Shown here: in pieces, positions 16,162 through 45,922 of the stretch | Position numbering within the stretch: the first letter of the stretch is position 1 | Layout of the letters: each line of letters starts with the position of its first letter | Source: Leptolyngbya sp. BL0902 | GTDB taxonomy: Bacteria; Cyanobacteriota; Cyanobacteriia; Phormidesmidales; Phormidesmidaceae | NCBI RefSeq assembly: GCF_016403105.1 | Contig: NZ_CP046155.1 | Location: 3,935,906-3,999,905, forward strand | DNA: 64,000 bases | Direction of reading: 5' to 3' | The notes under the pieces: model-generated | What the model was told of the DNA's origin: nothing | Databases searched by the model: none | The model's input: the letters and a program-made list of their open reading frames with translations, nothing else | Position numbers and translations under genes: made by a program

Positions 16162-16380
16162 CCTCTATTATCGATCACCGCTGGGATCGGGCGGCGTGAA
16201 AATCTGCACTAAGTTACTTTTCAGCAATGAGTTGCCACAGCAGGGAGATCGTAACGAAAGTCCTCTAGAAAGTTAAGCAAAGTTTTACTTTATAGATCTC
16301 TCCAAATGCAGCCGCTAAACTTAAAAAATAGGCTATCTTGTCGGCTTCGATGGTGCTCTACTTGGCAGGATAAAGAGACT

Positions 16381-18417
16381 ATGAAGATTTTATTTTTGGC
16401 CGCAAATCCACGCGGAACAGATCAACTTCAACTTGATCAGGAAGCTAAGAAAATTGAAGATGGCTTAGAGCGCTCTAAATTAAGAGAGCAATTTACCTTA
16501 GTTACCAAATGGGCTGTTGACGCCGAAAGTCTGCGTCGAGCCATGCTGAAAGAGCAGCCTGACATTGTCCACTTTTCTGGCCATGGTGCTGGCGATACAG
16601 GTCTTGTGCTTGTCGGACAAGATGGAAGTCCTAAGCCTGCAACTGCTGAAGCTTTATCTGGGCTTTTTCAGATCTTCCATGATGTTAAATGTGTTCTTCT
16701 GAATGCCTGCTTTGCCGAGATACAAGCAAAGGCTATCGTTGAACATATTGATTATGTTATTGGCATGAAGCGAGCAGTAAAAGATAGTACTGCTATTGCT
16801 TTTGCGACAGGCTTTTATGATGGCCTAGGTTATGGTCTAGATATTGAAGATGCTTTTAAACTGGGACGTAATGCCATCCAATTCGAGGTAGCCAGTTTTC
16901 CAAACCATCGCCAGGTAAGTCAAGACAGCAGGGATATCGAACTTCCCGATGTTGAGCCGTATGAAGCTGTCGATATTAGCGAAGATCTTAATCCCACCCT
17001 ACTGAAAAAAGATAGATTAGCTAAAACCGACTTAGGTTCTGTTGTCGCCTCTGAATCTTTAGCCGAAAAGCTAAGGGCGGCTGAAACCATGAATACGACT
17101 GAAGCGATTGATCAGTATCGTAGTCGAGTCAGGGACTTTTTGGCTGACCAAAAGCTTAATCCTATTGAGGAGTTTCAGCTAGCTACTCTAGCGAAGGTTC
17201 TAGGGATTTCAGACCTGATGGCAAATCAAGTCCTCAAAGAGGAGCAACAGGTTATCGATGCTGCCCGCAAGAACTACCGGGCCGTCTTCCAAGAAACCAT
17301 CAGCAAGGGCTACTATCCCTTTAGCTCTCAGATTAACCAAGAGCTCAAAGAGCTACAATCTCAGCTTGGATTGAGCAACGCTGATGTTGAAGAAATTACC
17401 CTGCCTATCATTCTCAGCTATGAAAAAAATCGCCGCACTTCTGGGCCTCGAACAACTCATCCCACCCCAATTAGCTACTCGCCTGGCCCAGTTCGTCCCT
17501 TTATTTCCAGCCGCAATTTTATCCTTGGGGCCCTGCTTGCGGCCTCTGGCATCGTGTCCACGTTACTGATTATCAACTTGCCCAATCCATCCCCCCTGCC
17601 TGATATGCCGGAGACGCCGCCTTCTCAAGCCCAAGAACCTCACCCAATGGGAGCAACTCCAGAATCGGATGAAGTACCTGCTGTCATCTCGCCAGGAGCT
17701 CAGTCGGTGAATATCCGCGCTGGACGGAGCGCCAATACTGATGTAGTTGCTATTCTTTCCCGTGGTGAGGTCTTCTACACGTTGCCCGAGAACGGCGACT
17801 GGTGGCCTGTGCGGAACACGAGTGGCAGCTTAGGCTACGTCCGCAGTAGCTGGATTAGCCTAGATTCAGTCGATAGTTCTAGCACCCCTCAACCTTCAAG
17901 ATCCACTGCTGTTCAGCCAACGCCAGAGCCTCACCCCATGGGGCTAACTCCAGGCCCTAATGAGGTTCCAGCCGTCATCCAGAATGCTCAGGCTGTGAAC
18001 ATCCGGTCTGGACGCAGTAATGACGCCTCGGTAGTAGGTACGTTGAGCCAAGGAGAGGTTTTTCAAACGATTCCGCAGGGGCAGGTAGGATGGTGGCCCG
18101 TGCGGAAGGCGAACGGCACTTTAGGTTATGTTTACAGCACCCGGATTAGACTGGCTTCTGACAATTCAGCTAACTTTCACCCCCTAGACCCTCGTAATCC
18201 TAGCGCTCCCACGGCTGTGCAGAGAGCGACGATTCAAACCAACGATGGGTTTCTGGTGGTAAGGACGGATAAGACACCTCAATCCCCCGAGGTGGATCGG
18301 ATCGTGACTGGGGAAGTATTTGAGACCATTCCTCAGAGTGATACTTGGTGGCCAGTGCGGACGGCAGATGGCAGCCTAGGGTATAGCAATAGCGCCTATA
18401 TCAGGCTTGCTGAGTAA
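16381..18417 (+). CDS. CHAT protease with two effector-associated helical repeats, membrane anchor and three SH3 domains
   Basis: The frame is open from 16306, but ATG 16381 begins the conserved strand MKILFLAANPRGTDQLQLD and is preceded by AAAGAGA; this gives 678 residues. Domains: CHAT caspase-like peptidase (1-175) with His68 in HFSGHG and Cys110 in LLNACFAE; two related helical units at 244-287 and 298-345, both of the pattern Y-R-x-x-(V/F)-x-x-x-(L/I)-...-LGxSxxxxxx(V/I), like effector-associated domains of bacterial conflict proteins; one membrane span (378-399); then three bacterial SH3 domains (about 435-505, 535-605, 620-678), each with a WWPVR core. The first half is visibly more AT-rich than its neighbours, suggesting transfer. 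A role as a regulated protease in stress or phage defence is inference. Confidence 0.85.
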   Translation: MKILFLAANPRGTDQLQLDQEAKKIEDGLERSKLREQFTLVTKWAVDAESLRRAMLKEQPDIVHFSGHGAGDTGLVLVGQDGSPKPATAEALSGLFQIFHDVKCVLLNACFAEIQAKAIVEHIDYVIGMKRAVKDSTAIAFATGFYDGLGYGLDIEDAFKLGRNAIQFEVASFPNHRQVSQDSRDIELPDVEPYEAVDISEDLNPTLLKKDRLAKTDLGSVVASESLAEKLRAAETMNTTEAIDQYRSRVRDFLADQKLNPIEEFQLATLAKVLGISDLMANQVLKEEQQVIDAARKNYRAVFQETISKGYYPFSSQINQELKELQSQLGLSNADVEEITLPIILSYEKNRRTSGPRTTHPTPISYSPGPVRPFISSRNFILGALLAASGIVSTLLIINLPNPSPLPDMPETPPSQAQEPHPMGATPESDEVPAVISPGAQSVNIRAGRSANTDVVAILSRGEVFYTLPENGDWWPVRNTSGSLGYVRSSWISLDSVDSSSTPQPSRSTAVQPTPEPHPMGLTPGPNEVPAVIQNAQAVNIRSGRSNDASVVGTLSQGEVFQTIPQGQVGWWPVRKANGTLGYVYSTRIRLASDNSANFHPLDPRNPSAPTAVQRATIQTNDGFLVVRTDKTPQSPEVDRIVTGEVFETIPQSDTWWPVRTADGSLGYSNSAYIRLAE

Positions 18418-30874: not shown

Positions 30875-32085
30875 CAGGGCAAACGCATACTCATTTTGTG
30901 AGCGTCAGCACCTTGAAGAGATAGTCGTTATCCCATCCGGCCTTGAGTCGTTTGGCTTTTTTGCCAACCTTGGCGGAGGATTCCTGCGTGAGAAGGTTGA
31001 GGGCCAAGTGTCGCAAGACGACCATATTTTGGGGGGCGTAGCCCGTGCGAATGCGACAGTCATCCTCATGGAAAGCGACATCAAGGCACCAGTGGAGGCT
31101 ATTTTCAATGCCCCAGTGGCTGCGGGTGGCCTGGGCAAAGCGCTCTACTCCGCCGTCAAGGCTGGTGAGATAGTAGCGTTGGGTGATCGTGGGAGCCTGC
31201 CCAGGAAGACGACGCTCCGATTCAATCAAGCCCACCCGCTTTAAGCCGAGCCACTGGTCGGCATCGACGAGATGCTCCACCTCCCCCAGGAGCCAATGAC
31301 GGCGGATTTCAATGCGACCATGGCCTTTCTCAATCGTTTCATAGGCTTCGTGGGGCATGGCCTTGAAGCCCTGCTGTCGGGCATGGTCAAAGATCTGCTG
31401 CACATCCTCGTAAAGGCCGGGCTGATTGCCCTTGAGGCTGAGGATGTAGTCCCCTTCCTGCTCAATAATCTGCTGGGCAATGGCCTTCTGAGTCCCCATG
31501 GCATCTAGGGTGACGATGCATCCTCTCAAGGCCAGCACCTTCAGTAAGGCTGGAATGGCCGTGATTTCATTCGATTTCTCATCCACGGCCACTTGCCCAA
31601 GCACCAAGCGATTCTCCGCCGCCCAGGCGCTCACCATATGGATGGCCCCCTTCCCTCGACCTCGGTCATAGGACTGCCGCACCGTTTTGCCGTCAATGGC
31701 CACCACACTGCCCTCACTCAGCGCCGATACCGATTTCACCCAACTCAGAAAACACCCCTGCAATTGGTCGGGGTCAAGTTGAGCAAACAGACGGCTAATC
31801 GTGTCGTGGGACGGAATTCCGCTTGGCAGCGCCAGAAAGGTCTTCAGCCACGCCGCTTTGCTTTGCCCGTAGGCTTCCACCTCCACCCAACTCTCCGCCC
31901 CACAGACCACCGCACAGATCGTTAACCCGATGATGTCTAACAAGCGGTGCTCAATCAGGTACGGAGTACGCGGATCCTCTAACGACTCAAAATGATTCAG
32001 CAGCCTATCCGTGGGGGCCATAGGATGTCTCCATCTCAACCTTCCCCATCAGTATCCCTGTTTCCACGAGTATGCGTTTGCCCTG
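30875..32085 (-). mobile_element. Complete ISAs1-family insertion sequence
   Basis: A 1211-base element bounded by perfect 18-bp inverted repeats: CAGGGCAAACGCATACTC at 30875-30892 and its reverse complement at 32068-32085. It is flanked by a 10-bp direct repeat GGGGGCGGCT (30865-30874 and 32086-32095), the target duplication. It holds one transposase gene, intact and on the minus strand. The perfect ends and duplication indicate a recent insertion. The target is the last codons of the DUF3084 gene. Confidence 0.96.
30891..32021 (-). CDS. ISAs1-family transposase
   Basis: A DDE transposase of 376 residues from ATG 32021 (MAPTDRLLNHF; the frame is open to 32039, adding MRWRHP). The N-terminal domain of the family is visible (LLDIIGLTICAVVCGAESWVEVE is its helix, with PSHDTISRLFA after it). 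The catalytic triad candidates are the Asp in VVAIDGKTVR, the Asp in VTLDAMGTQ and the Glu in GIENSLHW, followed by the DVAFHEDDCRIRTG motif. No frameshift or stop, so it is probably active. It ends at base 30891, inside the left inverted repeat. Confidence 0.95.
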   Translation of the reverse strand: MAPTDRLLNHFESLEDPRTPYLIEHRLLDIIGLTICAVVCGAESWVEVEAYGQSKAAWLKTFLALPSGIPSHDTISRLFAQLDPDQLQGCFLSWVKSVSALSEGSVVAIDGKTVRQSYDRGRGKGAIHMVSAWAAENRLVLGQVAVDEKSNEITAIPALLKVLALRGCIVTLDAMGTQKAIAQQIIEQEGDYILSLKGNQPGLYEDVQQIFDHARQQGFKAMPHEAYETIEKGHGRIEIRRHWLLGEVEHLVDADQWLGLKRVGLIESERRLPGQAPTITQRYYLTSLDGGVERFAQATRSHWGIENSLHWCLDVAFHEDDCRIRTGYAPQNMVVLRHLALNLLTQESSAKVGKKAKRLKAGWDNDYLFKVLTLTK

Positions 32086-34027: not shown

Positions 34028-36304
34028 CTAACCCCGATGCACATGGTAGGTGGGGAAGGATCCATAGTGCTTGGCCCACAGCACTTGCCCCACATAGTCG
34101 CAGGTGAAGGCTTGCACGTTTTCGGAAGCGGCCATGGCGGCAAAGGCTTGGCTGGCGTAGACCCGGCCAGGGGGGGTAATGGGCTCAATGCGGGCAGCGT
34201 GGTTCACATGGTTGCCCACGTAGTTCACCTGTCCGGTAATAGGATCCACGTTGCGATAGACGGGGCCAGCGTGGAGGGCAATCCGCAGGTTCATGTCCGG
34301 CGGCAGGTGGTGGTGCTCCCATTGGGTGGTTTGCATCAGGTCGCATAGGTCAAGGGCAAAGGTGCCCGCCTGCTCCACTGAGGCAAAGACGTAGTAGAGG
34401 GCATCGCCCCAGGTATTTTTCATGAGGGGTGGGACGGGCATTTGATCAGAGAGTTGGGCAATGGCCCCTAGGAAGCACTGGGAAAACTGCAACACCTGAT
34501 CTTCCTTGAGGTCGGTGAAATGCACCACATCGGCAAAGAGGAGGGCACAGATTTCCCGCTGGGTGTCGGCAGCGGCGGGCGGAATCGAGATTGGAGGAGA
34601 TGAGGGCTGAGACCCCAACCCTTGGTCAGGGCAATGGCGGGCCAGCAGCGCAGCGAGATCGACAATGTCCACATGGTCATTCCACTGCCGCCAGTAGGAG
34701 ACGGTATGGGCGGTACCGCCATGGCCATCCCCCGGTTGGCCGTCCCACACGGCCAAGGGCACCAGGGAGGTTTGCAACTGTTGCGCCCGCATACTAGCCA
34801 GCCCGTGGAGCAGTCGATTGGAGTACTCGTAGGAAATAGCGTCGTCCTTGGGCTTGTGATCTGAGGCAATGATCACCTCCCGCGCATGGGACAACACCCG
34901 CTGAAACCGAGCCAGCCAATCGTCCGTAGCTTCGTCGGAGGGTTGATCCTGCACCGCATCGGCCACGAACTGCTCTTGGTTGTAGGGCAGCACAATGTTG
35001 AGTTCGCCCCCCAGATCCAGCAGCGCCTCCAAAAACAAGATATCGCCCCCCGAAGCCGCCGAGGCAAAGCCCACGTAGGTGCCTAGGCTCTTCAGCCGCT
35101 CGTAGATGGCCTGATAGACTGGGCGTTCCAACTCCGCTGGAAAGCGAGGAACGGATCGTCCGGGCTGGTCTACCCGATGCCCACAAAACACCGCCACCCT
35201 CGGCAGGGAAAACCACTGGTTGAGGGTTTCCACCTCCTGGTTAAAATGGCGCATCAGCAGGGCCGCATTGCGATAGCTGGAGCTGAGGTCGCCGTAGCGA
35301 CTGGCCCCCCGCTGAGCGGCCTGGGTGTAGTATTGGGCGGCGGCATCCCAGTGGTTCAAAATCAACTCCGCTTCGCCTAGGGTCGCCAGCACCCAGTAGG
35401 TATCTTGCTCCTGGGTGGTTTTTTCGGCGAGGGCCGTTAGGCTGAATTGACGCACCTCCTCCGCCAGGGTTTGGGCCAGAGCCAAGTCCCCCGCCATCAC
35501 CGCCATGGTGGCGGCGTTGATGCCCGTCCAGATGCTGCGGCTGTGGCGATAGGCTTCGAGATATTCCTGAAAGGCGAGGGTTAAGTGTCGCTGTCGCTGC
35601 TCTGGATCGCGGGACTGCTTCCACAGGTCTTTGTGGGTGCGGGCATAGAGCCCCAGGGTTTGTTCGTCGCGCTGGCCCATCTGCACCAGTTCTGCCAGCA
35701 GTTGGTTAGCTGCTTGAGTGGCTCCGCTGCGGGCTAAGGACAGGGCCAAAAGCTGCTGCAATCGCAGGTTATCCGGCCAGCGATGGAGCCCTGCCATGAC
35801 CACGTCGTAGGCCAGGATGGGCTGTCCCTGCTGAAGCAGCATATCCCCCAGGGCGGTGTGCAGGTCGGGGGTGGCGGGTTGCAGGTTAATCAGCTCATTG
35901 CGTAGGGCCACCAGTGACGCCAGTCGAATATTGGCAGGGCTGTTTTCCCCGGCGAGCTGGGGCACCTGCAAGGGTGGGCTGGGGGTGGTGTTGGTTCCCG
36001 GTGGTGGATTGGCCTCAGACGCCTGCATAGCTAAGCGATAGCCCATGGCCAACACGATCTTGAAGTTATCTAGGAACAGCCGCCGTTTGGCGGTTTTTAC
36101 CTCCTCTGGTAACGCCTCAAAGGGCACCAGGTGGGGATGGGTTTGGCGCACTGGATCCACCTGCGATCCTTGCTGCCAGCCCAGGTGCAGCAGGGCATTA
36201 CACCAACGGCCATGATCCTGCTGAGACAGCGCTTCCGCCAACTGCACATATTCTGGCGGCAGCACCACCGAGGACGTATCCAGCAAACCCGTAAAGTATT
36301 CCAC
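34028..36304 (-). CDS. RyR-TPR-SLOG-like-nucleotidyl cyclase fusion protein
   Basis: A 758-residue protein. Residues 1-95 form a RyR domain (ending THPHLVPFEALPEE ... NFKIVLAMGYRL). A helical TPR-like region follows (about 130-345), then an alpha/beta domain (about 365-560) with FCGHRVD, SAASGGDILFLEALLDLG, IVLPYNQEQF and PLAVWDGQPGDGHGGT, which resembles SLOG/LOG-type nucleotide-binding folds. Residues 584-757 form a class III cyclase with metal ligands Asp592 (FADVV) and Asp634 (TWGDAL), Lys629, and transition-state residues Asn701 and Arg705 (NHAAR). So the cyclase appears catalytically complete. It should make cAMP (or cGMP) in response to a ligand sensed by the other domains; which ligand is unknown. 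No membrane segment. Confidence 0.85.
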   Translation of the reverse strand: MEYFTGLLDTSSVVLPPEYVQLAEALSQQDHGRWCNALLHLGWQQGSQVDPVRQTHPHLVPFEALPEEVKTAKRRLFLDNFKIVLAMGYRLAMQASEANPPPGTNTTPSPPLQVPQLAGENSPANIRLASLVALRNELINLQPATPDLHTALGDMLLQQGQPILAYDVVMAGLHRWPDNLRLQQLLALSLARSGATQAANQLLAELVQMGQRDEQTLGLYARTHKDLWKQSRDPEQRQRHLTLAFQEYLEAYRHSRSIWTGINAATMAVMAGDLALAQTLAEEVRQFSLTALAEKTTQEQDTYWVLATLGEAELILNHWDAAAQYYTQAAQRGASRYGDLSSSYRNAALLMRHFNQEVETLNQWFSLPRVAVFCGHRVDQPGRSVPRFPAELERPVYQAIYERLKSLGTYVGFASAASGGDILFLEALLDLGGELNIVLPYNQEQFVADAVQDQPSDEATDDWLARFQRVLSHAREVIIASDHKPKDDAISYEYSNRLLHGLASMRAQQLQTSLVPLAVWDGQPGDGHGGTAHTVSYWRQWNDHVDIVDLAALLARHCPDQGLGSQPSSPPISIPPAAADTQREICALLFADVVHFTDLKEDQVLQFSQCFLGAIAQLSDQMPVPPLMKNTWGDALYYVFASVEQAGTFALDLCDLMQTTQWEHHHLPPDMNLRIALHAGPVYRNVDPITGQVNYVGNHVNHAARIEPITPPGRVYASQAFAAMAASENVQAFTCDYVGQVLWAKHYGSFPTYHVHRG

Positions 36305-41035: not shown

Positions 41036-44000
41036 TCAAACAATCGTTCCTGTAATCGAGTATTGACCTAGGCTGCCATAATTACTGTACCCAGTCGTTA
41101 AGTCTCCCTTACCAGTGCCTTGAATACTGAGATAGTAAGTGCCCAAACTAAGATAGCGACTGATAAGAACTGACAAAGAGTCTGTCGGATCATAGGTTGC
41201 GATAATTTGGCCTGCACTGTTGTAAAGTCTGACCAAAATATCTAGGTTTGCACCAATTTCAAAGGCATTGATATTGAGCGAAAGATTGCCTCCAGTGGAT
41301 TCAAACCTGAACCAGTCAGCATCAGTATTCCTTTCGATAATGCCGTAGGTTCTAACTGTTGAGCCATTAAACATTAGGCTAGATGCAGTGCCTAGGGAAC
41401 TGCCATAGTCATCTGAACGATATCCAAATCCGTTATTACCTGTGATAATTGCCAAATCGTCCTGCGTGTTACTAGCTCCTGAATACTGACCATTGCTCCA
41501 TTGAGTAAGTTCCTGGTAATAACCTACCCCCATGATAGAAGCCCAGCCATTATGTCCTTCATAATATTCAGGCCCACCAGTTACGCCATCATGACTCAAG
41601 CCTAAGGTATGGCCCACCTCATGGGACACTGCCTCAGCAATACTTTTTTCCGAGTAAAACTTCTCACTGAAGATAAAGGTTGGAGTGTCACTATTCCAGT
41701 TAAAGGAATTAAGATAAGCTGTCCCCCCAGCAGTTTGAGAATACCAAGCTCCATTCCCTCCAATTACGACACGAATGCCCCACCGTGTATCGTTGCTATC
41801 ACTTTTAATCAAATCAGATAGGACAGGAGCCGCAGTTGTTACGTTCACATTAAAGGGGATAAAGTCTTCTGCCACCCGACGCCAAATATTCCAGATATTT
41901 CTCCGCTCATCCGTTGAAAAGCTGGTATTGTTGCCATCCATATCATAGGCTGGCGTAGCAATACTACTACCATTGTTATATCTGCTGTTCCACTCAGTGT
42001 TGGTAGTAGTATGCCCATCAAAATCTAGATAGATGGTGTGGTTGGCACTAGAGTGACTATGGAGTGAAAAAACTTGATTGGCATCAAAAGCTTGATAGGT
42101 TGGCGGAACATAGCCAGAATTCCAATTAACAGTGATCGCAGCAGCGGCGACGTTATTGAACTCATTGCTTTCGGTGACGTAGTTATAACCATCGGCTTCA
42201 AAGAGGATGTATTTAGTCCCTGTCCCCCAGTTTGAGTTGTAGGTGAAGCTAAATGAGTCATATTCTGAAGAACCAGCGGCTAAACTTCCAACATAGTTCT
42301 CCCCTAGGTAACGGTCACTGCTGGTATTGAGTGTGGCATCATCCGATAGCCAATAGCGGACATAGCTATAGCCAGCATTAGCCGTTCCTTGGTTGCGGGT
42401 ATTGCTACTGATATTGACCGTATTGCCTACCGTAACAGAAGTTGGTGCAGACTGGTTTTGAATGATGAGATCTGCTTGTGGTAATGAGTTGATCGTTATA
42501 GCTCTATAGGCAATATTATTACCTTCATTGCTTTCAGCAACTTGGTTATAGCCGTCAGCTTCAACCAAAATATACTTTGTCCCAGTTCCTAGACTACTAC
42601 TGTAGGAAAAGCTAACGGAGTCGTATATTGAGCTTCCGGCACCAATAGACGCAATAGATCTATTGCGCAGGAAATAATCGTCACTACTAAGCGTCATGTC
42701 GTTAGATAGCCAGTAGTTGACATAACTGCTGCTAGCAGTACCTGCACCTTGATTCCTAACGTAATAACTCACTGAAATTGAGTCACCCACAGTAATCGAA
42801 CTAGGTGTGTATAAATCTGTAACGATTAAGTCTGGCTGAGCCAACGGATTAATGGTGATTGCTCGATAAGCTACATTATTAGCTTCATTACTTTCTGCCA
42901 CAGAACCATAGCCGTCAGCTTCAAAGAAAATGTATTTCGTTCCCGTGCCCCAACTTGCATTGTAGGTAAAGCCAAACGAGTCATACTCTGAAGACCCGGC
43001 AGCTAAACTACCGACATAGTTCTCCCCTAAGTAACGGTCACTGCTGGTGTTGAGCGTGGCATCATCTGAGAGCCAATATCGAACATAGCTATAGCCAGCG
43101 GAAGCCGTTCCTTGGTTGCGGGTATAGCTATTGATGTTGACGGTATTGCCAACGGTTACAGAACTTGGCGCAAATGGGCTCTGAATAACGAGATCTGGCT
43201 GTCCACCGACGGTGATTGCAGCAGCGGCGACGTTATTGAACTCATTGCTTTCGGTGACGTAGTTATAGCCGTCAGCTTCAAAGAAGATGTATTTCGTTCC
43301 CGTACCCCAACTGGCATCATAGGTGAAGCTAAACGAGTCATATTCTGAAGATCCAGCAGCCAAACTGCCAACATAGTTATTCCCTAAAAATCGGTCACTG
43401 CTGGTGTTGAGCGTGGCATCATCTGAGAGCCAATATCGAACATAGCTATAGCCAGCAGAAGCCGTTCCTTGGTTACGTGTATAGCTATTGATGTTGACGG
43501 TATTGCCAACGGTTACAGAACTCGGTACAAATGGACTCTGAATGACTAGATCTGGCGAAATAGCTGTGGCGTTTAGAGTGAGGTTGTAAGTTGTGTCACC
43601 ACTAGCCCGATAGACCTGAGCGTAATAGGTGCCTGCATTCAACTGACGACTAATACTTTCTGCACTATTGCCTGTTAGATAAGAACCTCCAAGGATAGAG
43701 CCCGCACTATTCAGCAGCCGAACATTGGCATCAGCCCTCAGTCCAGTTAAGCTGAGGCTGAAGTTGCTAGTGGTACCGACATCAAAGCGATAGTAATCGT
43801 TGGTATCAATGCTGCCAACCCAATCGGTGAAGCTGCGAGAACCGACCAGGGTACCCACATTGCGGGCGGCACTGAGGGTATTGCCTGCGGAGTCTAGGGG
43901 TGTGGCATTGAGAGAAAGGCTGTAGTTCGTGTTCCCACTAGCTCGATAGACCTCTACATAATAGGTGCCTGCACTCAACTGACGACTAATACTTTCTGCA

Positions 44001-45922
44001 CTATTGCCCGTCAGATGAGAGCTTTGAAAGGCAGTGCCTGCGCTATTTAGCAGTCGGACATTAGCGTTGGCACTCAGTCCGGTTAAGCTCAGGCTGAAGT
44101 TGCTTGTAGTACCGATATCAAAGCGGTAGTAATCATCGCTATCACCGCTGCCGACCCAGTCGGTAAAGCTGCGAGAGCCGACTAGGGTACCCACATTGCG
44201 AGCAGCACTGAGGGTATTGCCTGCGAAGTCTAGGGGGGTAGCGTTCAGAGAAATGCCGTAGTCCGTGTTCCCACTGGCACTATAGACCTGCGCGTAATAG
44301 GTACCTGCACTCAACTGACGACTAATACTTTCTGAACTATCGCCCGTCAGATAAGAGCCTTGAAGTGTAGAGCCCGCACTATTCAACAGCCGGACATTGG
44401 CATCGGCACTCAGTCCCACTAAGCTGAGGCTGAAGTTGCTGGTGGTACCGACATCAAAGCGGTAGTAGTCATTGGTATCAACGCTGCCAACCCAGTCGAT
44501 AAAGCTGCGAGAACCAACTAGGGTACCCACATTACGAGCGGCACTGAGGGTATTGCCTGCGGAGTCTAGGGGCGTAGCATTGAGAGAAAGGCTGTAGTTC
44601 GTGTCCCCACTAGCCCGATAGACCTGTGCGTAATAGGTGCCTGCACGCAACTGACGGCTAATACTTTCTGCACTATTGCCCGTCAGATAGGAACCTTGGA
44701 GCACCGTGCCCGCACTATTTAGCAGTCGGACATTAGCATCGGCACTCAGTCCAGTAAGATTGAGCCGGAAGTTGCTAGTAGTACGGAAATCAAAGCGGTA
44801 GTAATCATTGGTATCAACGCTGCTAACCCAATCGGTAAAGCTGCGAGAGCCGACTAGGGTACCCACATTGCGAGCAGTACTGCGGGTATTGCCTGCATAG
44901 TCTAGGGGCGTGGCATTGAGAGAAAGAATGTATTTAGTATCACCAGTAGCCCGATAGATCTGTGCGTAGTAGGTACCTGCACTCAACTGACGACTAATAC
45001 TTTCTGAACTACTGCCCGTCAGATACGATCCTTGGAGCACAGAGCCCGCACTATTCAACAGCCGGACATTGGCATTGGCACTCAGCCCAGTGAGGTTAAG
45101 GCTGAAGTTGCTGGTGGTACCGATATCAAAGCGGTAGTAATCATTGGTATCAGTACTCCCGACCCAATCGGTAAAGGTTCGAGGGCTGACTAAGCTACCC
45201 ATATTACGGGCCGTACTGAGGGTATTATCCTGCTCTACAGCAATGGATTGGCCGTTGAGCCAAAGGTATCCGCTATCATCTTCCTGCTTTAAATACGCTA
45301 ACTCATTCAGGCATAGGTCTTGGCCTAGGACGAGGCGCGCAAAGATATCTCCTTCATCTCCAGAAGCATCTATTGTATTAATTTGATCATCAATAAAATG
45401 ACCAATTTCCTCTAGCAAAACCTTGGTAATGTCCTGATAACTGCCGTTGCTGATAAAGGTATCTGAAAGAAAGATGGTATTAAGTGCGGCTGCATAGGCT
45501 CCATTGGCACCATTCAAAATGGTGGCATCAAGAATTTGGAATTGGGGGAGATTGGCTAGATTTCCTTCTAGGAAGTTCTGCCTTAAAGACTCTGCAATTT
45601 GTTGATCATAATTCTCGCCAAAGGCAAGACCTGTGATTTCTTCATAGGCTGAACTTTCTGCAAAGCTTCTAAGGGTTGCTCCAACACTGTGGCTAATCCC
45701 TTGAATCCAAGCCTTAAAATCTAGGGCTGAGAGCTCAGAGAGTGCTACTGGCTTGAGATCATTGTTTATTGGGAAGCCAGCACTAAAGCGACTTTCCTCG
45801 AAGAGTGTAAAGGAATCGCTGAAGGAAAAAGTGCTACTAGGGGCGGCATTGTGCCCAGAGGCATAATCTTGAAATTCAAGGGCAGAAGAAGACATAAGGT
45901 TCTCTATACATGGGTGATCCAT
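41036..45922 (-). CDS. Giant secreted metalloprotease with five PPC-like and four CARDB repeats
   Basis: A 1628-residue protein. The N-terminal domain (about 1-230) includes LLEEIGHFIDDQIN, like a degenerate zinc motif. Next are five tandem PPC-like repeats of ~108 residues (about 231-775; each has ARNxGxL, DYYRFD, VRLLNSAG, AGTYYAQVY), four CARDB domains (about 785-1240; PDLVIQS, VRYWLSDD, ESNEANNVA) and a metzincin peptidase domain (about 1260-1500) with HEVGHTLGLSH and the Met-turn candidate ASIMG. A final PPC domain (about 1505-1628) ends the protein. No classical signal peptide is seen, so export by a type I or similar route is inferred. It is AT-richer than its neighbours, and its repeats are highly similar at DNA level. 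An alternative start lies at residue 10. Confidence 0.9.
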   Translation of the reverse strand: MDHPCIENLMSSSALEFQDYASGHNAAPSSTFSFSDSFTLFEESRFSAGFPINNDLKPVALSELSALDFKAWIQGISHSVGATLRSFAESSAYEEITGLAFGENYDQQIAESLRQNFLEGNLANLPQFQILDATILNGANGAYAAALNTIFLSDTFISNGSYQDITKVLLEEIGHFIDDQINTIDASGDEGDIFARLVLGQDLCLNELAYLKQEDDSGYLWLNGQSIAVEQDNTLSTARNMGSLVSPRTFTDWVGSTDTNDYYRFDIGTTSNFSLNLTGLSANANVRLLNSAGSVLQGSYLTGSSSESISRQLSAGTYYAQIYRATGDTKYILSLNATPLDYAGNTRSTARNVGTLVGSRSFTDWVSSVDTNDYYRFDFRTTSNFRLNLTGLSADANVRLLNSAGTVLQGSYLTGNSAESISRQLRAGTYYAQVYRASGDTNYSLSLNATPLDSAGNTLSAARNVGTLVGSRSFIDWVGSVDTNDYYRFDVGTTSNFSLSLVGLSADANVRLLNSAGSTLQGSYLTGDSSESISRQLSAGTYYAQVYSASGNTDYGISLNATPLDFAGNTLSAARNVGTLVGSRSFTDWVGSGDSDDYYRFDIGTTSNFSLSLTGLSANANVRLLNSAGTAFQSSHLTGNSAESISRQLSAGTYYVEVYRASGNTNYSLSLNATPLDSAGNTLSAARNVGTLVGSRSFTDWVGSIDTNDYYRFDVGTTSNFSLSLTGLRADANVRLLNSAGSILGGSYLTGNSAESISRQLNAGTYYAQVYRASGDTTYNLTLNATAISPDLVIQSPFVPSSVTVGNTVNINSYTRNQGTASAGYSYVRYWLSDDATLNTSSDRFLGNNYVGSLAAGSSEYDSFSFTYDASWGTGTKYIFFEADGYNYVTESNEFNNVAAAAITVGGQPDLVIQSPFAPSSVTVGNTVNINSYTRNQGTASAGYSYVRYWLSDDATLNTSSDRYLGENYVGSLAAGSSEYDSFGFTYNASWGTGTKYIFFEADGYGSVAESNEANNVAYRAITINPLAQPDLIVTDLYTPSSITVGDSISVSYYVRNQGAGTASSSYVNYWLSNDMTLSSDDYFLRNRSIASIGAGSSIYDSVSFSYSSSLGTGTKYILVEADGYNQVAESNEGNNIAYRAITINSLPQADLIIQNQSAPTSVTVGNTVNISSNTRNQGTANAGYSYVRYWLSDDATLNTSSDRYLGENYVGSLAAGSSEYDSFSFTYNSNWGTGTKYILFEADGYNYVTESNEFNNVAAAAITVNWNSGYVPPTYQAFDANQVFSLHSHSSANHTIYLDFDGHTTTNTEWNSRYNNGSSIATPAYDMDGNNTSFSTDERRNIWNIWRRVAEDFIPFNVNVTTAAPVLSDLIKSDSNDTRWGIRVVIGGNGAWYSQTAGGTAYLNSFNWNSDTPTFIFSEKFYSEKSIAEAVSHEVGHTLGLSHDGVTGGPEYYEGHNGWASIMGVGYYQELTQWSNGQYSGASNTQDDLAIITGNNGFGYRSDDYGSSLGTASSLMFNGSTVRTYGIIERNTDADWFRFESTGGNLSLNINAFEIGANLDILVRLYNSAGQIIATYDPTDSLSVLISRYLSLGTYYLSIQGTGKGDLTTGYSNYGSLGQYSITGTIV

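What the first reader, a model, noticed from the sequence alone, without database searches (positions are those of the whole stretch)
34028..36304. RyR-TPR-SLOG-like-cyclase fusion: a possible ligand-gated cyclic-nucleotide producer
A RyR domain (best known in ryanodine receptors and in bacterial conflict proteins), a TPR-like region and a nucleotide-sensor-like alpha/beta domain are fused to a cyclase whose metal and transition-state residues all remain. In bacterial conflict systems RyR and SLOG domains sense nucleotide-derived signals, so the protein may turn one signal into cAMP/cGMP. I have not seen this combination described.
Basis: partly seen in the sequence, partly recalled or inferred. 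Interest (0 to 1): 0.65.

Follow-up and report, generated by a model that had tools for sequence, protein, structure and literature searches.

The report
TIR-linked RyR–SLOG nucleotide cyclase
A cyanobacterial protein that probably makes a small cyclic nucleotide signal carries built-in sensor parts of types that elsewhere read signals made from NAD, and some of its relatives sit next to the kind of gene that makes such signals, which suggests an undescribed two-step immune relay.

Summary
Confirmed, on the minus strand: window 34028-36304 encodes one 758-residue protein, RyR – TPR-S/ASK1-like repeats – SLOG – class III cyclase. RyR, TPR-S and cyclase pass Pfam cut-offs; SLOG has no sequence match, but its model matches YpsA at Z 17.9 and, more weakly, TRPM2 and ThsA. 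It is not a one-off: one genome scan gave 66 loci, and 24 of 67 aligned rows (window included) carry RyR. TIR_2 is the commonest Pfam family among 122 immediate-neighbour proteins (19); by slot, 19 of 123 at ±1 against 3 of 263 at ±3 or beyond. A 2026 preprint shows phage RyR domains binding or cleaving 2'/3'cADPR; their ligand residues keep the same spacing here, except that Asp is Lys73. Best reading: a receptor for TIR-made, NAD-derived signals that answers with a cyclic nucleotide. 'cAMP/cGMP' is unsupported: the base-selecting positions are Asn630/Asn694. Against: no TIR gene beside this copy; TIR proteins like its genome's two occur in relatives without the cyclase; three genomes with RyR-less relatives show no TIR_2; 46 of 65 anchored loci have no TIR at ±1. 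No activity was tested.

The parts
34028..36304 (-). whole gene, 758-aa RyR-TPR-S-SLOG-class III cyclase protein, GTG start, stop included
36029..36283 (-). RyR domain, residues 8-92; His31, Trp34, His56 kept at the spacing of RyDEP H75/W78/H100; the position of RyDEP D117 is Lys73
   Evidence: Pfam PF02026 E 2.2e-17; residues and spacing; RyDEP residues from PMC13232231
36086..36088 (-). Lys73 codon, at the position equivalent by spacing to the RyDEP catalytic Asp117
35195..35977 (-). TPR-S / ASK1 central-regulatory-region-like helical repeats, residues about 110-370 (Pfam TPR-S 167-267)
   Evidence: PF20308 E 4e-19; model matches ASK1 5ulm_B Z 21.6, rmsd 3.4, 246 aligned
34628..35206 (-). 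SLOG-fold domain, residues about 367-559
   Evidence: model pLDDT 92.7; YpsA 2nx2 Z 17.9, DprA Z 12.5, LOG about 10, TRPM2 9.9, BcThsA SLOG with 3'cADPR 6.9
34031..34564 (-). class III nucleotidyl cyclase domain, residues 581-758
   Evidence: PF00211 E 3.5e-10; model matches cyclases at Z 19-22
34529..34531 (-). metal-binding Asp592 codon
34403..34405 (-). metal-binding Asp634 codon (NTWGD motif)
34415..34417 (-). Asn630 codon, at the adenine/guanine-selecting Lys/Glu position
34223..34225 (-). Asn694 codon, at the second base-selecting position (Asp/Cys)
34202..34204 (-). transition-state Asn701 codon
34190..34192 (-). transition-state Arg705 codon

Best explanation
The protein is a receptor-enzyme of a TIR-linked signalling family. 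A TIR protein turns NAD+ into an ADP-ribose-type signal (such as a cADPR isomer). The RyR domain, the SLOG domain, or both (with the TPR-S repeats as scaffold or third sensor) bind it, and binding brings two cyclase domains together in a homodimer that makes a 3',5'-cyclic mononucleotide, which then acts on a downstream receptor. In this cyanobacterium the TIR source would act from elsewhere in the genome. Shown here: the domains, the SLOG and ASK1-like folds by prediction, the retained catalytic residues, the recurrence of the architecture and the excess of TIR neighbours in the family. Inferred: the ligand, the gating, the product and the immune role.
For: Pfam RyR, TPR-S and cyclase above cut-offs. 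SLOG fold nearest YpsA, with TRPM2 solved with ADP-ribose and ThsA solved with 3'cADPR also matched. ASK1-like repeats Z 21.6; in worms SARM1/TIR-1 acts upstream of ASK1/NSY-1 (PMC8920508, passages). RyR residues spaced 0/+3/+25/+42 as in RyDEP, whose relatives bind 2'/3'cADPR (PMC13232231, parts 1-2 of 6 and passages). TIR_2 is the most frequent Pfam family among 122 immediate-neighbour proteins (first 420 residues each), 19 of 122. A locally built TIR profile gives 19 of 123 slots at +-1, 5 of 112 at +-2, 3 of 263 at +-3 or more, Fisher p 8e-8 for +-1 against +-3 or more; 13 of the 19 are on the cyclase's strand, 6 on the other. Of 61 loci (5 fragments left out), a TIR at +-1 occurs in 11 of 25 with RyR and 6 of 36 without, p 0.02. 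By eye, a Glu sits at the usual TIR catalytic position in many of the 22 TIR proteins aligned (position recalled). DrHyd/TIR-like domains are fused to TPR-S and SLOG in L016 and L127.
Against: No TIR gene lies beside the window copy. Near-full-length relatives of the own genome's two TIR proteins occur in genomes without the cyclase: G390, G391, G395 and G399 for one, G387 and G408 for the other; so there is no specific co-occurrence. Three genomes with RyR-less relatives (G007, G016, G029) have no TIR_2 match. 46 of 65 anchored loci have no TIR at +-1, and only 7 of 22 clusters at 60% identity do; the p values ignore relatedness. Six of the 19 adjacent TIR genes are on the opposite strand, so not in one operon. 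RyR Asp is Lys73 here. The ThsA SLOG match, Z 6.9, is in the range that the tool calls possibly just a common arrangement. The worm paper, in the passages seen, does not show that TIR-1 acts on ASK1 through an NAD-derived signal. No cNMP effector recurs beside the family: cNMP_binding is not among the 25 most frequent neighbour families shown; one was seen at L036.
Confidence: 0.45

Rival explanations
1. An ordinary class III cyclase that uses its N-terminal domains to sense a metabolite such as ADP-ribose, NAD or another adenine nucleotide and makes cAMP for CRP-type regulators; no immune role, and TIR neighbours are incidental to signalling-gene islands.
For: The own genome has 13 cNMP_binding domains, 12 over cut-off; animal RyR domains have been solved with adenine-containing ligands (PMC13232231); TIR genes can be many in these cyanobacteria (26 TIR_2 matches in G170, 10 in G215).
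Against: Patchy distribution, 6 of 386 phylum genomes (own included) and 0 of 22 other genus members, does not look like housekeeping; TIR_2 stands above any unrelated neighbour family, 19 versus 5 or fewer; the base-selecting residues are not those of adenylate cyclases.
Confidence: 0.27
2. A signal eraser or sponge: the RyR domain (and SLOG) binds or breaks cADPR to shut a TIR system off, and the cyclase is a secondary output.
For: RyDEP is a glycosidase, and two relatives characterised in detail act as sponges (PMC13232231); 22 rows keep the Asp at the catalytic position.
Against: In the window protein the position of the catalytic acid Asp is Lys73, so RyDEP-type hydrolysis is unlikely; a fused, conserved cyclase argues for signalling.
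Confidence: 0.1
3. The cyclase domain is not an active cyclase but binds a nucleotide or acts as a regulatory domain, with base-selecting and, in relatives, transition-state Asn lost.
For: Asn at the Lys/Glu position in 66 of 66 rows with a letter there, and Ser in place of the transition-state Asn in 43 of 67 rows.
Against: Both metal Asp present in 66 of 66 rows with a letter there, and Arg705 in 64 of 67; a paper passage says Rv1900c lacks the Asn yet is active (PMC4886424, passage); the window protein keeps Asn701.
Confidence: 0.13

Closest known systems
Thoeris (ThsB TIR + ThsA SIR2-SLOG)
   Same: TIR gene beside a SLOG-bearing protein in part of the family; SLOG of BcThsA was solved with 3'cADPR (7uxs title)
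   Different: output is a cyclase instead of a SIR2 NADase; extra RyR and TPR-S; window copy has no adjacent TIR
RyDEP, phage RyR-domain anti-Thoeris proteins (PMC13232231)
   Same: RyR domain with His/Trp/His at identical spacing
   Different: host multi-domain protein, not a phage single-domain protein; Asp is Lys73 in the window copy, Asp in 22 aligned rows; RyDEP itself was not aligned
ASK1/MAP3K5 central regulatory region and TPR-S proteins
   Same: TPR-S/MAP3K_TRAF_bd match and fold Z 21.6
   Different: kinase replaced by cyclase; no PH domain was looked for
Pycsar (cyclase PycC + TIR or membrane effector; recalled)
   Same: class III cyclase linked with TIR genes
   Different: here TIR would act upstream and sensors are fused to the cyclase; no PADLOC model matched any of 5 family members
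TRPM2 (SLOG-type N-terminal domain)
   Same: SLOG fold Z 9.9
   Different: bacterial soluble cyclase, no channel

Membership tests
RyR domain (PF02026) | curated profile score | tested here: met
   63.5 bits against cut-off 27.4
RyR domain, RyDEP-type ligand site | His/Trp/His contacts to ADP-ribose ligand at +0/+3/+25 | tested here: met
   His31, Trp34, His56; by spacing, RyDEP sequence not at hand
RyR domain, RyDEP-type glycosidase | catalytic Asp at +42 | tested here: not met
   Lys73 here and Lys in L019; Lys also in the L026 frame (counted by eye); Asp in 22 rows
TPR-S (PF20308) | curated profile score | tested here: met
   69.5 bits against 27.6
SLOG superfamily | fold | tested here: met
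   predicted model: YpsA Z 17.9, then DprA, MoCo carrier, LOG, TRPM, ThsA
SLOG superfamily | sequence profile match | tested here: inconclusive
   no convincing Pfam match in 43 members; one member has DNA_processg_A at E 0.091; no dedicated YpsA/ThsA comparison was run
SLOG superfamily, cADPR-sensing clade | binds cADPR or ADP-ribose | not testable with these tools
   needs a binding assay
class III nucleotidyl cyclase | profile score, two metal Asp, transition-state Asn/Arg | tested here: met
   40.2 bits against 21.9; Asp592, Asp634, Asn701, Arg705
adenylate or guanylate cyclase in the strict sense | Lys/Asp (AC) or Glu/Cys (GC) base-selecting pair (recalled) | tested here: not met
   Asn630/Asn694
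class III nucleotidyl cyclase | makes a cyclic nucleotide | not testable with these tools
   needs an assay
Thoeris | TIR gene next to the receptor gene | tested here: not met
   window neighbours are a 134-aa ORF, DUF3084, GDSL lipase and YchF (YchF named from its sequence, recalled); met in 19 of 65 anchored family loci
Thoeris | NADase or other known ThsA effector domain | tested here: not met
   Pfam and PADLOC scans show none
Pycsar | PycC-type cyclase model and partner effector | tested here: inconclusive
   no PADLOC hit for 5 cyclase-bearing members; whether that library holds a PycC model was not checked

The most novel reading that the evidence does not exclude
A two-messenger immune relay: a TIR enzyme makes a cADPR-type signal, and the RyR-TPR-S-SLOG receptor converts it into a second, amplified cyclic mononucleotide whose base may not be A or G, because the base-selecting site is Asn-based throughout the family rows seen. 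It would be a bacterial parallel of SARM1 acting on ASK1, and a host-side use of the RyR domain that phages use as an eraser or sponge.
Probability: 0.25. Interest if true: 0.88.

Novelty: new variant of a known kind. Interest (0 to 1): 0.62.

Why it matters
If true, NAD-derived immune signals in bacteria would be amplified through a second cyclic nucleotide, and RyR domains would have a host receptor role beside the eraser and sponge role reported in phages. It gives a directly testable bacterial model for how RyR, SLOG and ASK1-type TPR domains read NAD-derived messengers, a question also open for animal ryanodine receptors and SARM1–ASK1.

Tried and rejected
Genome scan with the single protein matched 7 stretches but no relative; repeated with an alignment. 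A test for specific co-occurrence of the own-genome TIR types with the cyclase failed: 29 of 38 and 15 of 38 genomes have a match at E ≤ 1e-30, many of them to the CHASE2 part or to the TIR part alone, and near-full-length matches also occur in genomes without the cyclase. Phages: with the whole window protein only RyR matched, in 2 records. Plasmids: 10 records with partial matches, none covering 80%. PADLOC: no hit for 5 family members. No TIR domain was found inside the family proteins by the local profile at E ≤ 1. Absence of a SLOG Pfam hit was not taken as absence of the fold. Six structure calls were only waiting.

Bias to note: the patterns were NTWGDALY and YG[TS]FPTYH, so Asn at the base-selecting position is partly selected for. 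Eleven rows with NTWGDGLY or NTWGDGLF, which the first pattern cannot match (L018, L020, L021, L025, L029, L031, L036, L039, L040, L041, L052), also have Asn.

Limits of the neighbour counts: ORFs were called mechanically, so GC-rich loci hold spurious neighbours; in L060, L062 and L064 the anchor was an antisense ORF, and L082 had no anchor; none of these four carries a counted TIR. L019 and L054 come from one assembly and count as two loci.

Rows dropped: L082 from the family alignment; L042 and L049 from the neighbour counts, as copies of genomes G029 and G007; one of 123 ±1 slots was not passed on, so 122 proteins were scanned by Pfam; fragments L051, L054, L080, L081, L082 from the RyR/TIR table. 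In that table L026 counts as RyR-bearing although its RyR is in another frame, and the short ORFs L070-L073 count as without RyR although they may be incomplete.

Full report
Observation. The gene lies on the minus strand at 34028-36304 and encodes 758 residues. Pfam places RyR at 8-92, TPR-S at 167-267, the overlapping MAP3K_TRAF_bd at 178-324 and Guanylate_cyc at 584-740, all over the curated cut-offs. The full-length model has mean pLDDT 88.1. It matches cyclases over 580-758 at Z 19-22 and the ASK1 central regulatory region over 110-370 at Z 21.6, rmsd 3.4, 246 aligned.

SLOG. Residues 362-562 have no convincing sequence-level match. Folded alone (pLDDT 92.7), the domain's best Foldseek matches are YpsA (E 4e-7), then DprA, ShosA and MoCo carrier. 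VIA-align gives YpsA Z 17.9 (rmsd 3.0, 161 aligned), DprA 12.5, LOG about 10, TRPM2 solved with ADP-ribose 9.9, and BcThsA SLOG with 3'cADPR 6.9 (rmsd 3.8, 129 aligned). The tool warns that Z under 8 may mean only a common arrangement, so the ThsA row alone would prove little.

Family. In its genome the protein has one full match; one further weak match (E 0.002) is to the cyclase part only. It is found in 6 of 386 phylum genomes at E ≤ 1e-20, own genome included, and in none of the 22 other genus members at E ≤ 1e-10. A genome scan with an alignment gave 66 loci from cyanobacteria, Acidobacteria, deltaproteobacteria, Methylomirabilota, Chloroflexota, alphaproteobacteria and others; most records are metagenome bins. 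Of 67 aligned rows, 24 carry RyR with His and Trp in place. The nearest long matches are L026 (71% in the best segment) and L019 (59%). In the genus, 11 relatives' loci around the neighbouring GDSL gene were held: a YchF-like gene is also matched in 10 of 11, and the cyclase in none (about 1,500 bases held on the side where the cyclase lies here). So the gene sits in a variable spot; a DDE transposase lies a few genes away.

Cyclase. Asp592 and Asp634 are present in all 66 rows with a letter there; Arg705 in 64 of 67; the transition-state position is Asn in 14, Ser in 43 and other or gap in the rest. A held paper states that Rv1900c lacks the Asn and is active (PMC4886424, passages). At the adenine/guanine-selecting position the family has Asn (NTWGD) in 66 of 66 rows with a letter, partly selected by the search pattern, though 11 rows outside that pattern have it too. 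The second position varies (Asn in 26, Thr in 21 of 67). In the profile alignment with a soluble guanylate cyclase, Asn stands where that enzyme has Glu. The product therefore cannot be called cAMP or cGMP from sequence.

RyR. PMC13232231 (a preprint; parts 1-2 of 6 and passages read) reports that RyDEP binds and cleaves 2'/3'cADPR through H75, W78, H100 and D117; six of eight tested relatives bind the signals, the tested relatives do not cleave them, and the two characterised in detail act as sponges. The offsets 0/+3/+25/+42 fit His31/Trp34/His56/Lys73 here without a gap, and the phage Nepra RyR keeps His, Trp, His and, counted by eye, Asp at +42. I did not align RyDEP itself. Asp is kept in 22 rows; Lys occurs in the window protein and L019 and, by eye, in L026. 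So RyDEP-type cleavage is unlikely in the window protein, but binding is not excluded.

TIR neighbours. Among 66 family loci examined (65 with an anchor ORF), a local profile built from 13 TIR seeds finds a TIR gene at ±1 in 19, within ±2 in 24 and anywhere held in 27. By slot: 19 of 123 at ±1, 5 of 112 at ±2, 3 of 263 further out; Fisher p 8e-8 for the first against the last, not corrected for relatedness; 7 of 22 clusters at 60% identity. Of the 19, 13 are on the cyclase's strand and 6 on the other. A Pfam scan of 122 immediate neighbours (first 420 residues each) makes TIR_2 the most frequent family (19), then ThsB_TIR (10) and TIR (8), related models of the same domain; no other of the 25 families shown exceeds 5. 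The partners are of several types: TIR-WD40, TIR-TPR and TIR alone. A TIR at ±1 is more frequent with RyR (11 of 25) than without (6 of 36), p 0.02, also uncorrected. L019 and L054 are overlapping contigs of one assembly, 98.5% identical over 266 bases; L054 has a TIR gene 3 bases past the cyclase stop, on the opposite strand. L016 and L127 carry a DrHyd/TIR-like domain fused to TPR-S and SLOG without a cyclase (the domain name is recalled, with a PADLOC 'TIR effector' match in L016); L016 also has a SLATT_1 match below its cut-off. This suggests that TPR-S–SLOG is a swappable sensor.

Results against. The window copy has no TIR beside it. Its genome has two TIR proteins elsewhere: a 1078-aa one with three TIR matches, 44% identical to the L012 neighbour, and a 484-aa one, 56% identical over 195 residues to the L054 TIR. 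Near-full-length relatives of the first occur in G390, G391, G395 and G399, and of the second in G387 and G408; none of these six has the cyclase. The raw tallies, 29 of 38 and 15 of 38, include many matches to CHASE2 or to the TIR part alone. Genomes G007, G016 and G029, with RyR-less relatives, have no TIR_2. The own genome has 13 cNMP-binding domains, which is not specific.

Mechanism. Most likely (0.45) an ADP-ribose-type signal from a TIR is bound by RyR and/or SLOG; the TPR-S region transmits it; and a homodimeric cyclase, with catalytic sites at the dimer interface (established for class III cyclases, recalled), makes a cyclic nucleotide. RyDEP is itself a homodimer, so a RyR dimer could drive cyclase dimerisation; this is inference. 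The SARM1–ASK1 parallel is a lead only: the worm paper (passages) places TIR-1 upstream of ASK1 but the passages seen do not show an NAD-derived signal between them. Rivals are a metabolite-sensing ordinary cyclase (0.27), an inactive cyclase domain (0.13) and an eraser or sponge (0.10).

Literature. Word searches listed no paper whose title or abstract start describes RyR–TPR–cyclase proteins; most listings were capped (for example 15 of 47 and 12 of 132), so this is weak evidence of absence. Term searches within PMC7159879, PMC8195603 and PMC9503650, which discuss cNMP cyclases or SLOG in conflict systems, find no 'RyR'; in PMC8195603 'ryanodine' occurs only in the reference list. The 2020 paper by Burroughs and Aravind, which I recall as predicting TPR-S to read NAD-derived signals, is not held, so novelty of the bare architecture is not established.

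Changes made on checking: genus count corrected to 22, locus count to 65 anchored, the co-occurrence counter-evidence restated by coverage, strands of the TIR neighbours added.

Noticed in passing
window 16306-18417 (+): CHAT-domain protein with three SH3_3 stretches; PADLOC 'chat' E 4e-15. A possible caspase-like conflict protein about 16 kb from the cyclase.
   Followed up: partly
window 30891-32039 (-): DDE transposase (DDE_Tnp_1 and its associated domain) near the cyclase, in line with a variable region.
   Followed up: no
L016:7411-10722 and L127: DrHyd/TIR-like - TPR-S - SLOG fusions without cyclase in two other cyanobacterial genera; L016 also has a SLATT_1 match below its cut-off.
   Followed up: partly
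L011 and L012: Cyclase relatives flanked by large secreted-type proteins; the L011 neighbour has a two-partner-secretion (TPS) domain, and TPS occurs in 3 of 122 immediate neighbours.
   Followed up: no
L026:4989-6960: The closest relative's gene is split between frames: RyR in one ORF, TPR-S onward in another; read as two pieces.
   Followed up: no
phage records (H13-H72 listed): The RyR stretch of L018 matches in 285 phage records at E <= 1 (60 listed), many annotated as hypothetical.
   Followed up: partly
window 41036-45922 (-): 1628-aa protein with five PPC and four CARDB stretches and a Reprolysin-like metalloprotease match.
   Followed up: no
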